Of a stretch of 28,932 bases of DNA, positions 5,259-7,179 are shown in pieces. The stretch's first letter is position 1. Each line of letters starts with the position of its first letter. Location: positions 1 through 28,932 of IMG/VR virus record IMGVR_UViG_3300049222_000093; one strand, 5' to 3'. Below the pieces are notes generated by a model that worked only from the letters and a program-made list of their open reading frames with translations, searched no databases and had not been told where the DNA came from. Both the position numbers and the translations under genes were made by a program. Source of the DNA: a virus.

Positions 5259-5284
5259 AAAGAAAGAAAAAGAAGAAAAAATAA
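5195..5284 (+). CDS. micro-protein, 29 aa, Lys-rich
   Basis: ATG at 5195 encodes MPYGKGTYGSKVGRPPKKS followed by a poly-Lys tail ending at TAA 5282-5284. It has a GAAAGGG ribosome site at 5181-5187, and its stop overlaps the next ATG by one base. The GRPPKK core is like an AT-hook, so minor-groove DNA binding is possible, but a 29-residue protein gives little to test. It overlaps the end of the Cys-rich -1 frame in another reading frame. Its coupling to the next gene and its clean ribosome site support it. Confidence 0.7.
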   Translation: MPYGKGTYGSKVGRPPKKSAMKRKKKKKK

Positions 5285-5562
5285 TGGCTACTTATAGAGG
5301 TCGTCAAGTTAAGCTGAATAAACCATTCAGAACCCCAAGCAAATCAAAGAAGTTTGGTGTTTATGTAAAGAATAAAGCTACAGGCAATGTTCAGATAGTC
5401 CGATTTGGCGACCCTAAATTATCTATAAAGAAAAATATCCCTGCTAGACAAAGAAGTTTTATGGCTAGATTTAGACCCATATTAGCCAAAGTCAAAGGAC
5501 AGAAAAACCTATCCCCTGCTTATTGGGCAGTACAATCTTGGAAAAAAGGATTTAAAGTGTGA
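5284..5562 (+). CDS. small basic protein, 92 aa
   Basis: A 92-residue basic protein with the ordered pattern KKFGVYVKN...VQIVRFGDPKLSIKK...PARQRSFMARFRPI...LSPAYWAVQSWKKGF. This resembles a domain I recall from phage proteins, sometimes attached to prohead proteases (DUF6321-like: FGDPxxxIKxxxPxxRxSFxAR, then YW...W). No protease catalytic residues are present here, so only the domain is supported. The stop TGA (5560-5562) lies inside the left arm of the inverted repeat that brackets the next, antisense gene. The start overlaps the preceding micro-gene by one base. Confidence 0.8.
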   Translation: MATYRGRQVKLNKPFRTPSKSKKFGVYVKNKATGNVQIVRFGDPKLSIKKNIPARQRSFMARFRPILAKVKGQKNLSPAYWAVQSWKKGFKV

Positions 5563-5573
5563 TATGGTTGGTT
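5550..5573 (+). repeat. inverted repeat, left arm
   Basis: These 24 bases match the reverse complement of 6050-6075, with only two single-base insertions in the right arm. The core is TATGGTTGGTT preceded by AGTGTGA. The arm includes the last codons and stop of the 92-aa gene. Together the arms bracket the only minus-strand gene in the window. Confidence 0.85.
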
Positions 5574-5586
5574 TGTTTAGTTTAGT

Positions 5587-6030
5587 TTATAAATAACCTT
5601 TTGAACTATTTGGGCTAAAATTATCAAAGACACCTTCTCTGATTTTTATATCCGCATCTGTCAAAGAGTTTATTTTTTCTTGTTTTTCTTTTATTTCTTT
5701 TTTTCTTTTTTCTATTTGCTTCTCTAAATCTAATATTCTTGCTTGAATACTATTTTTCTTTTCAGTTTTAGCAAATAGAATTGCGTCTTTTATACTTTTA
5801 TGGAAATAATTAGGTTTACTAAATTCCCAAAATTTTCTTATGCCTTGTTTTTTACCATACGAACTAGCTGAAAAATCAACATAGTGCATTTTGGCATAGA
5901 CATAAAAATTATTTGATTTTTTATTGAATTGATATCCATATATTTTTGTTTTTCTAATTTCAAATGTACTTCTATCAATCATATAAAAGGTTTTTCCATT
6001 AAGGAAATATTCGTGTTTTTTATCAAACAT
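5587..6030 (-). CDS. antisense accessory gene, unknown, 147 aa
   Basis: The only minus-strand gene. It has a perfect AGGAGG ribosome site (complement of 6037-6042) 6 bases before its ATG at 6030 and an extended -10 promoter further upstream. The N-terminal half (about 1-90) is rich in Tyr, Phe and Lys. Residues about 95-125 form a highly charged coiled coil (KQIEKRKKEIKEKQEKINSL). There is no signal peptide, membrane segment or recognisable catalytic motif. Its isolation, own promoter, opposite strand and flanking inverted repeats are the signs of a moron or recently gained cassette, interrupting the usual portal-to-MuF run. I do not recognise the family. A role in host takeover or superinfection exclusion would be pure inference. 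Confidence 0.8.
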   Translation of the reverse strand: MFDKKHEYFLNGKTFYMIDRSTFEIRKTKIYGYQFNKKSNNFYVYAKMHYVDFSASSYGKKQGIRKFWEFSKPNYFHKSIKDAILFAKTEKKNSIQARILDLEKQIEKRKKEIKEKQEKINSLTDADIKIREGVFDNFSPNSSKGYL

Positions 6031-6049
6031 AATTTACCTCCTGTTCGAT

Positions 6050-6075
6050 AACCAACCATATTCACACTGTTAAAT
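6050..6075 (+). repeat. inverted repeat, right arm
   Basis: The right arm of the pair with 5550-5573, read as AACCAACCATATTCACACTG followed by TTAAAT on the + strand. It falls in the 5' untranslated region of the antisense gene, just upstream of its ribosome site. The two arms are about 500 bases apart. Confidence 0.85.
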
Positions 6076-6080
6076 AGCAA

Positions 6081-6104
6081 ATTAAATTTTATATAAAATT
6101 TAAT
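6081..6104. promoter_or_regulatory. 24-base perfect palindrome, possible operator
   Basis: ATTAAATTTTAT is followed by its exact reverse complement. The palindrome lies between the antisense -10 element (6115-6120) and its ribosome site, inside the presumed leader. It could be a repressor operator or an RNA hairpin. It is pure A/T, so chance contributes, but 24 bases without mismatch is long. Confidence 0.5.
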
Positions 6105-6114
6105 AAACATCTCT

Positions 6115-6123
6115 ATTATACCA
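6115..6123 (-). promoter_or_regulatory. extended -10 promoter of the antisense gene
   Basis: On the minus strand this reads TGGTATAAT: a perfect TATAAT with the TGn extension. No good -35 lies at 17 bases (a TTGAAA is only 12 bases upstream), which extended -10 promoters tolerate. Transcription would start near 6108, about 80 bases before the ATG at 6030. Confidence 0.6.
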
Positions 6124-6249
6124 TATTGAGATTTTCAATTTTTCAGAAATAGGGTAAAAATGGACATAATGAAAAATAGAATTATTTGTTATCACAATTT
6201 AGGGTGCGACAAACTTGTACATTTGACACGATTTTTGGAAAAATAAAAA

Positions 6250-7179
6250 ATGGCAAAACAAGAGATATTAAACAGGCTAATTGATACTCACGAACAAAGA
6301 GTTATTGGCGTACTTAAAAAACTTGAAGATGACATTATTGCTGATTTAACCAAGTCAACCGCAGGTGGTGAAAAGCTAACCACCCAACTAGCAGTTCAAC
6401 TTAGACCGAACCTTAAAAGATTAATTGAAGAAAACTATTTATCAGAAGTAGATGATATTATCCGTAGTGACTATGATGAGATTATAAAAGAATATCAGAA
6501 GTTCATTAGACCGCTACCTATCCCTGCAAGGTTTAAATCATTAACGAAACCTAATCTGGAAGTCATTAACCAACTAAAGTTTTTATCTTTTAGTGGGTTT
6601 GAGGATATTGCAAACACCTACCTAGACACATTAGCGAATGAGGTTTATCAGTCCGCTATTGTAGGCAAGGACTTTAGAGATATGGTAAAAAATATTAGAG
6701 CCAAAATAAATGGCGTTTACCAGAGAAGTGATGAAACAGAAATCAATCGCCTTGTAGATTTCATAGATAAAAATAGATATTCCAACAATGCTAGTATCAA
6801 GGCACAAGTAGCTGTAGCAAAAGAAACACTACAGTCTAAATATGCCGCTGATATTTATGGCGATAATATGCGAAGATATGCAAGTCAAATGGCACACGAT
6901 AGTTTAATGCAGTTTGATGGACAGTTTACAAAGTACAAAGCCGCAGAAGCAGGTATCACTAACTATAAATACACAGGAACGAATATTGTGACTACACGAC
7001 CTTTTTGTAGAAATAACCTTAATAAAGTGTTTTCTGAAGAAGAAGCTATTAGTTTATGGACATCTACTAGGTGGGCAGGAAAGTCTGGAACTGACCCATT
7101 TATCAATAGAGGTGGTTATAGATGCCGCCACAGCTTTATTCCCTACGACCCAGAATGGGAAAATTTGATTGAAGAATAG
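6250..7179 (+). CDS. MuF / SPP1 gp7-like head morphogenesis protein
   Basis: A 309-residue minor head protein. The long helical N-terminal part (1-230) is followed by a conserved C-terminal block: GTNIVTTRPFCRNNLNKVFS (about 244-263) and GGYRCRHSFIPYDPEW (about 289-304). This RxFC...GxxxCRH pattern is the hallmark of MuF-type proteins, which associate with the portal and enter the head in small numbers. In most siphoviruses this gene directly follows the portal; here about 2.3 kb of small basic genes and the antisense island intervene. A TTGACA lies at 6223-6228 but without a convincing -10. No clear ribosome site is seen beyond GGAAAAA. Confidence 0.8.
   Translation: MAKQEILNRLIDTHEQRVIGVLKKLEDDIIADLTKSTAGGEKLTTQLAVQLRPNLKRLIEENYLSEVDDIIRSDYDEIIKEYQKFIRPLPIPARFKSLTKPNLEVINQLKFLSFSGFEDIANTYLDTLANEVYQSAIVGKDFRDMVKNIRAKINGVYQRSDETEINRLVDFIDKNRYSNNASIKAQVAVAKETLQSKYAADIYGDNMRRYASQMAHDSLMQFDGQFTKYKAAEAGITNYKYTGTNIVTTRPFCRNNLNKVFSEEEAISLWTSTRWAGKSGTDPFINRGGYRCRHSFIPYDPEWENLIEE

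What the first reader, a model, noticed from the sequence alone, without database searches (positions are those of the whole stretch)
6081..6123. Palindrome and extended -10 form a compact control region for the antisense gene
A 24-base perfect A/T palindrome (6081-6104) lies just downstream of the TGGTATAAT promoter (6115-6123, minus strand), at a position where a repressor would block transcription start. Together with the inverted-repeat arm and AGGAGG, the antisense gene has a complete individual expression cassette, unlike its late-gene neighbours. This suggests expression at a different time.
Basis: partly seen in the sequence, partly recalled or inferred. Interest (0 to 1): 0.5.

Follow-up and report, generated by a model that had tools for sequence, protein, structure and literature searches.

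The report
Marine phage gene cassette with end-paired mRNA
The A/T palindrome is most likely the first hairpin of a messenger RNA whose two ends look built to pair with each other around a small inserted gene, a layout found in other marine phages around different genes and resembling the leader and trailer of ribosomal RNA operons.

Summary
6081-6104 is a perfect 24-base palindrome, the only one over 12 bases in the window, and TGGTATAAT at 6115-6123 (minus) is the window's only TGNTATAAT. The operator reading is not supported: in 41 of 44 distinct leaders a stem-loop ends 0-3 bases before the next motif, with differing stems, loops and inserts. Next come a boxA-like motif (GCTATTTAACA here, often GCTCTTTAACA elsewhere), a leader arm, Shine-Dalgarno, gene and, at the stop codon, a trailer complementary to the leader. 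The helix covaries: 14 of 21 pairs change on both sides, no shuffle of 500 matching. The frame encloses at least four cargo kinds without detectable similarity, in several phage types. In the window it is antisense in a head-gene site that is empty in 28 of 78 distinct loci with both neighbours. So this is a moron-like cassette with an rRNA-operon-like leader-trailer mRNA. Function is inferred: the window's boxA carries C4A, which relieves Nus repression of another gene in E. coli, transcription was not observed, and cargo function is unknown.

The parts
6115..6123 (-). extended -10 promoter element TGGTATAAT
   Evidence: TGNTATAMT within 150 bases upstream of the motif in 38 of 44 distinct leaders
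6081..6104 (-). the palindrome: predicted 5' stem-loop of the cassette transcript (10-pair A/U stem, 4-base loop)
   Evidence: pair probability 0.75-1.0, start at 6108 assumed; stem-loop kept in relatives with differing sequence
6068..6078 (-). boxA-like motif GCTATTTAACA (one mismatch, C4A, to GYTCTTTAANA)
   Evidence: position 4: C in 26, A in 15, G in 2, T in 1 of 44 distinct leaders; consensus from PMC5725501 (passages)
6051..6075 (-). leader arm of the leader-trailer helix (overlaps the boxA-like motif)
6021..6050 (-). predicted hairpin at the ribosome binding site, start codon partly in the stem, next to the long helix
   Evidence: probability about 0.9; comparable hairpins in some relatives only
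6037..6042 (-). Shine-Dalgarno AGGAGG
5587..6030 (-). cargo gene, 147 aa, four predicted strands and a long helix, function unknown
5550..5572 (-). trailer arm; on the plus strand it contains the last codons and the TGA stop of gene 5284-5562
5284..5562 (+). upstream neighbour gene (phrog_7595, function unknown) whose end overlaps the trailer
6250..7179 (+). downstream neighbour, weak matches to head maturation protease / minor head protein families

Best explanation
The palindrome is part of a self-contained moron-type expression cassette inserted antisense in the head-gene operon. Host RNA polymerase starts at the extended -10. The transcript begins with a stem-loop (the palindrome), then a boxA-like sequence and a leader arm, then the ribosome binding site and gene; just past the stop codon a trailer pairs back onto the leader, so the coding region is held in a loop closed by a helix of about 23 pairs. 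Supported by comparison: the recurring order of parts, the structural conservation of the stem-loop, the covarying leader-trailer complementarity and the exchange of cargo. Inferred: that it acts as RNA; that, as proposed for rRNA operons, the boxA-like leader is kept near the polymerase until the trailer emerges; and that end-pairing fixes and protects the mRNA ends and insulates the gene from the transcription around it.
For: The leader layout is in all 16 contigs found by a leader pattern, with the trailer seen in 15 (L165 ends too soon), and in 30 of 35 from a looser one, judged by eye. Leader x own trailer beats 200 shuffled trailers in each of 25 cassettes (0 of 200 each). RNAalifold on a MAFFT alignment of 22 joined leader+trailer pieces puts 9 pairs between leader and trailer, 7 with two-sided compensation. 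For the 21-pair helix that I named, 14 pairs change on both sides, covariation score 0.286 against 0.145 (sd 0.013) in shuffles, 0 of 500, and every slid register is lower. Loci found by cargo-d protein: 34 of 56 have the leader motif; 24 of these 34 have a significant helix against 1 of 22 without it. 11 of the 56 were contigs already known from the leader patterns; without them 23 of 45 have the motif, 14 of 23 with a significant helix (recounted). Stem-loop. Cargo kinds. Sites: head-gene junction, between an RNA polymerase gene and a Gp2.5-like gene, beside replication genes. Empty sites. The window transcript is predicted to fold this way.
Against: No transcript was seen. The window's boxA-like motif carries C4A, which relieved Nus-dependent repression of a Citrobacter gene tested in E. 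coli. The host's rRNA leader was not obtained. Swap control: against the trailers of the other 24 cassettes the own trailer ranks first in only 9 of 25 and as low as 10th; related trailers are alike and some pair longer with boxA. G-U against A-C counts do not fix the strand: 6 to 1 by pairwise alignment, 11 to 14 by fixed columns, and the plus-strand RNA can form the same helix. 22 of 56 cargo-d loci lack the leader motif and 10 of 34 with it miss the helix threshold; nine have a strong hairpin after the gene instead of a trailer. The stem-loops are weak: shuffles do as well in 5% or less for only 26 of 44. RNAalifold found 9 of my 21 pairs, at -5.7 kcal/mol, and not the stem-loop. The alignment holds 22 of 27 sequences prepared.
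Confidence: 0.6

Rival explanations
1. Repressor operator: a dimeric protein binds the palindrome just downstream of the start site and blocks transcription.
For: Perfect 24-base palindrome at a suitable place, unlikely by chance.
Against: Half-site spacing and sequence vary while a stem-loop at the same place is kept, with extra hairpins added in some; the exact palindrome occurs once in the record.
Confidence: 0.08
2. mRNA end-pairing as a translational lock, as in hok mRNA: leader-trailer helix plus ribosome-site hairpin keep the full-length mRNA silent until its 3' end is trimmed.
For: A predicted hairpin holds part of the window's start codon beside the helix; ribosome-site hairpins with z of -3.0 or lower in 6 of 19 distinct cassettes, mean z -1.8. 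Hok precedent: PMC4147584, passages and reference list.
Against: Many cassettes have no such hairpin; the cargos examined are 68-202 aa, not small membrane toxins (judged from sequence); no antisense RNA was looked for beyond the sequence.
Confidence: 0.25
3. RNase III site pair: the helix exists to be cut, releasing the gene's mRNA and stopping read-through from or into the late transcript.
For: Long paired stretches; the same helix can form in either strand's RNA.
Against: The leader strand keeps a primary sequence (GYTNTT...GTGAATA) that cutting alone would not need; bulges recur.
Confidence: 0.2
4. DNA-level inverted repeats: an invertible (phase-variable) gene or ends of a mobile element.
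For: Arms match within each genome and differ between genomes; the cassette is found at several sites.
Against: 34 of 34 leaders with a -10-like sequence upstream are followed by a sense ORF, none inverted; arms are unequal (recurring bulge, 2x2 mismatch); promoter and stem-loop outside the arms are shared too.
Confidence: 0.05

Closest known systems
rRNA operon leader-trailer with boxB-boxA-boxC (E. coli; PMC10250234: passages, and section 16)
   Same: Order stem-loop, boxA-like motif, leader strand, product, complementary trailer; leader-trailer pairing supported by covariation.
   Different: Encloses a protein gene; boxA-like motif lies partly inside the helix; boxC not tested; host Nus dependence unknown.
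Phage morons (PMC7067206, start of abstract in the listing; details recalled)
   Same: Accessory gene with its own promoter-like element between phage genes, at a site that is empty in relatives.
   Different: Antisense here; no intrinsic terminator found after the gene; a shared RNA frame reused by dissimilar cargos.
boxA in mRNA leaders: suhB, Citrobacter CKO_00699 (PMC5725501: passages, and section 14)
   Same: boxA-like motif in the 5' UTR of a protein gene.
   Different: [quoted passage not shown] here 25 nt away in the window, with a paired trailer.
hok mRNA end-pairing (PMC4147584, passages and reference list)
   Same: 5' and 3' ends of one mRNA pair.
   Different: Cargo not toxin-like by sequence; no antisense RNA or leader peptide noticed.

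Membership tests
Phage moron | Extra gene between conserved neighbours, absent from relatives | tested here: met
   28 of 78 distinct loci with both neighbours have under 60 bases between them; 6 of the 50 filled ones, the window among them, carry this cassette
Phage moron | Own promoter | tested here: inconclusive
   TGGTATAAT unique in the window and shared by relatives; no -35; no transcript data
Phage moron | Own intrinsic terminator | tested here: not met
   One search lists none within 300 bases after the gene on the minus strand; no U run follows the trailer directly
rrn-type boxA leader | boxA consensus GYTCTTTAANA | tested here: not met
   The window has GCTATTTAACA (C4A). Among 44 distinct leaders position 4 is C in 26 (the pattern used fixed some other positions)
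rrn-type boxA leader | Stem-loop upstream of boxA | tested here: met
   36 of 44 plus five of the L172 type when the whole stretch is folded
rrn-type boxA leader | Leader-trailer helix supported by covariation | tested here: met
rrn-type boxA leader | NusB/NusE binding and antitermination | not testable with these tools
   needs binding or transcription assays
Repressor operator | Conserved half-site sequence and spacing | tested here: not met
Rfam families | Match to a described RNA family | tested here: not met
   0 matches up to E 1 over 5400-6400
hok-type end-paired mRNA | Translation locked by end-pairing | not testable with these tools
   only a predicted ribosome-site hairpin

The most novel reading that the evidence does not exclude
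Marine phages carry a mobile expression frame that copies the logic of an rRNA operon: a boxA-like leader recruits host Nus factors so the polymerase reads the cargo through opposing transcription, and the trailer then pairs with the leader, boxA included, stripping the Nus complex and ending the privileged state right after the gene. It would be antitermination with a built-in off switch, on a closed-loop mRNA that also protects its ends.
Probability: 0.18. Interest if true: 0.85.

Novelty: new variant of a known kind. Interest (0 to 1): 0.62.

Why it matters
It would be a new structured-RNA frame for accessory genes in marine phages (the nearest named relatives of this phage infect SAR11), one that works with dissimilar cargos and in several phage types. 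It suggests how a small antisense gene can be expressed inside a head operon, gives a concrete test of whether phages imitate rRNA-style leader-trailer pairing, and gives a sequence handle for finding unknown cargo genes.

Tried and rejected
Operator reading: set aside on structural conservation. Invertible segment: 0 of 34 inverted. Copy of a cellular rRNA leader: pattern GCTCTTTAACANTGTGAATA over genome contigs gave one match (L166), which looks unrelated by eye; this does not test a diverged host boxA. Wobble bias to fix the transcribed strand: inconclusive. Cargo identity: Pfam, PHROGs and PDB sequence searches gave weak, scattered or coiled-coil-type hits only. Structure models of cargo a (pLDDT 82, five sequences) and cargo d (pLDDT 88, 43 sequences) have no PDB match with E of 0.001 or better; one search is a second look at Foldseek's own list, best Z 4.9 on the C-terminal helix. 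Isolate phages: for cargo a one match of no weight (E 7); for cargo d one distant relative (Erythrobacter phage, 30% identity) with no leader seen by eye; the leader DNA gave 151 partial matches, best E 0.01. One search was a faulty script (wrong window for the motif); one search replaces it. Library searches listed no paper that appeared to describe this cassette; this rests on titles and abstract starts of capped lists (pelagiphage with boxA, found none), apart from the papers cited. PMC10504331 was seen in passages only and decided nothing.

Full report
Observation. The record is a 28.9-kb virus contig with a large terminase, portal, scaffold and major head protein. The best named matches of its terminase are SAR11 phages HTVC111P and HTVC202P at 57% and 56% identity, so the host is a guess.

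Site. The antisense gene sits between a small gene (5284-5562) and a gene with weak head-protease and minor-head matches (6250-7179). Among 78 distinct loci that hold both neighbours within 1400 bases (drawn from the best 80 of each of two searches, plus the window's own), 28 have under 60 bases between them and 50 are filled; 6 of the 50, the window among them, carry this cassette (junctions). The other fillings look different, some with promoter-like starts on the plus strand (by eye). In cassette-bearing members the upstream gene ends ...GTGTGATATGG or ...ATTGTGATATGG, where empty ones end ...TTTAATGA and the like: the trailer arm supplies its stop codon on the other strand.

A shared frame. 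The homologue in L002 (76% identical) lies elsewhere, on a contig with a repressor-like gene, yet has the same upstream and downstream elements. Pattern TTTAACANTGTGAATATGG found 16 viral contigs, all cassettes; GCTCTTTAACANTGTGAA found 25, of which I judge 18 to be cassettes and 7 not; TTTAANANTGTGAATATGR found 35, of which 30 are cassettes and 5 not. 26 distinct cassettes were listed, 25 with a trailer. Their cargos fall into at least four kinds with no similarity at E below 0.5 between kinds: a 147-aa protein (the window), a two-gene type, a ~104-aa type and a ~200-aa type. They sit antisense beside the portal gene (L181) or in the window's site, in sense between an RNA polymerase gene and a Gp2.5-like single-strand-binding gene (L185), and beside a primosomal or replication-type gene (L159).

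The palindrome. In 44 distinct leaders the stretch between the -10 and the boxA-like motif folds a stem-loop ending 0-3 bases before the motif in 36 (exactly 2 bases in 30, counted), with 16 different 5' arms, many of them A/T-rich. Five more (L172 type) do so, 1 base before the motif, when the whole stretch is folded; in three (L213, L233, L239) the predicted fold ends earlier. Loops vary and several leaders carry two hairpins. Shuffles do as well in a mean of 5.5%. This is what an RNA hairpin would show more than a fixed DNA operator. The window's perfect palindrome is one of the most symmetrical versions.

The helix. The leader arm is complementary to a trailer just beyond the stop codon. 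Duplex energies are -23 to -37 kcal/mol against means of -8 to -14 for shuffled trailers, 0 of 200 in each of 25. The own trailer is not always the best among all cassettes (first in 9 of 25). Among 24 distinct leader/trailer pairs 11 leader positions carry two or more Watson-Crick pair types. On 22 joined sequences RNAalifold found 9 pairs of the leader-trailer helix, and the named 21-pair helix exceeds all 500 shuffles in four of five measures (7 of 500 reach the fifth) and every slid register. The shuffles ignore relatedness and the structure was drawn from these sequences, so neither is a probability. Cargo-d homologues were fetched by protein (75 loci; 56 with distinct usable flanks): 34 have the leader motif and 24 of these a significant helix, against 1 of 22 without the motif. 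Eleven of the 56 are contigs already known from the leader patterns; without them the figures are 23 of 45, 14 of 23, and 1 of 22. The motif expression fixes some positions. Nine loci without it (L219, L220, L226, L230, L231, L236, L242, L243, L249) have a G/C-rich hairpin near the stop codon in place of the trailer (by eye).

The window's own RNA. The predicted fold of 6108-5540 (minus; start assumed) has the stem-loop, 23 leader-trailer pairs with probabilities mostly above 0.9, and a hairpin that holds part of the start codon.

Mechanism. The anatomy is closest to an rRNA operon: stem-loop, boxA, leader strand, trailer. In the model described in PMC10250234 (section 16), boxA bound by NusB anchors the leader until the trailer emerges from the polymerase. 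I infer that the cassette uses this logic to make a closed, protected mRNA, insulated from the operon around it. The boxA part is the weakest step: the window and about a third of the distinct leaders have A at position 4 (15 of 44), and C4A relieved Nus repression of CKO_00699 in E. coli (PMC5725501 section 14). A translational lock of the hok kind and RNase III processing remain open.

Known or new. No Rfam match. The listed searches of the open library showed no description of it (calls named under Tried and rejected). As a moron it is a known kind; the leader-trailer frame is, as far as I could test, a new variant.

Noticed in passing
5562-6250 and relatives: The site between the two neighbour genes is a cargo hot spot: 50 of 78 distinct loci are filled, some with TTGACA...TATAAT-like starts on the plus strand.
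   Followed up: partly
6021-6050 (minus): Predicted ribosome-site hairpin (UAUCGAACA / UGUUUGAUA) next to the long helix; L025 keeps the pairing with changed letters.
   Followed up: partly
L171, L173, L174, L175: Other phage or provirus contigs also have GCTCTTTAACANTGTGAA after promoter-like sequences, in L171 shortly behind a G/C-rich hairpin and before an ATG (by eye).
   Followed up: no
L191-L265, cargo-d family (alignment A4): A family of about 180-200 aa with invariant GWR.L.H...H, a later H and E, and a long C-terminal helix; no Pfam, PHROG or PDB match of weight; possible metal site.
   Followed up: partly
L203, L154, L164, L198 downstream of the trailer: Hairpins with loops like GAAAGCGAGAA follow several trailers; perhaps terminators of the convergent neighbour gene.
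   Followed up: no
L169: Its ORF joins the L156-type start (92% identity over 24 aa) to the 104-aa cargo type (47-63% identity), suggesting cargo recombination inside the frame.
   Followed up: partly
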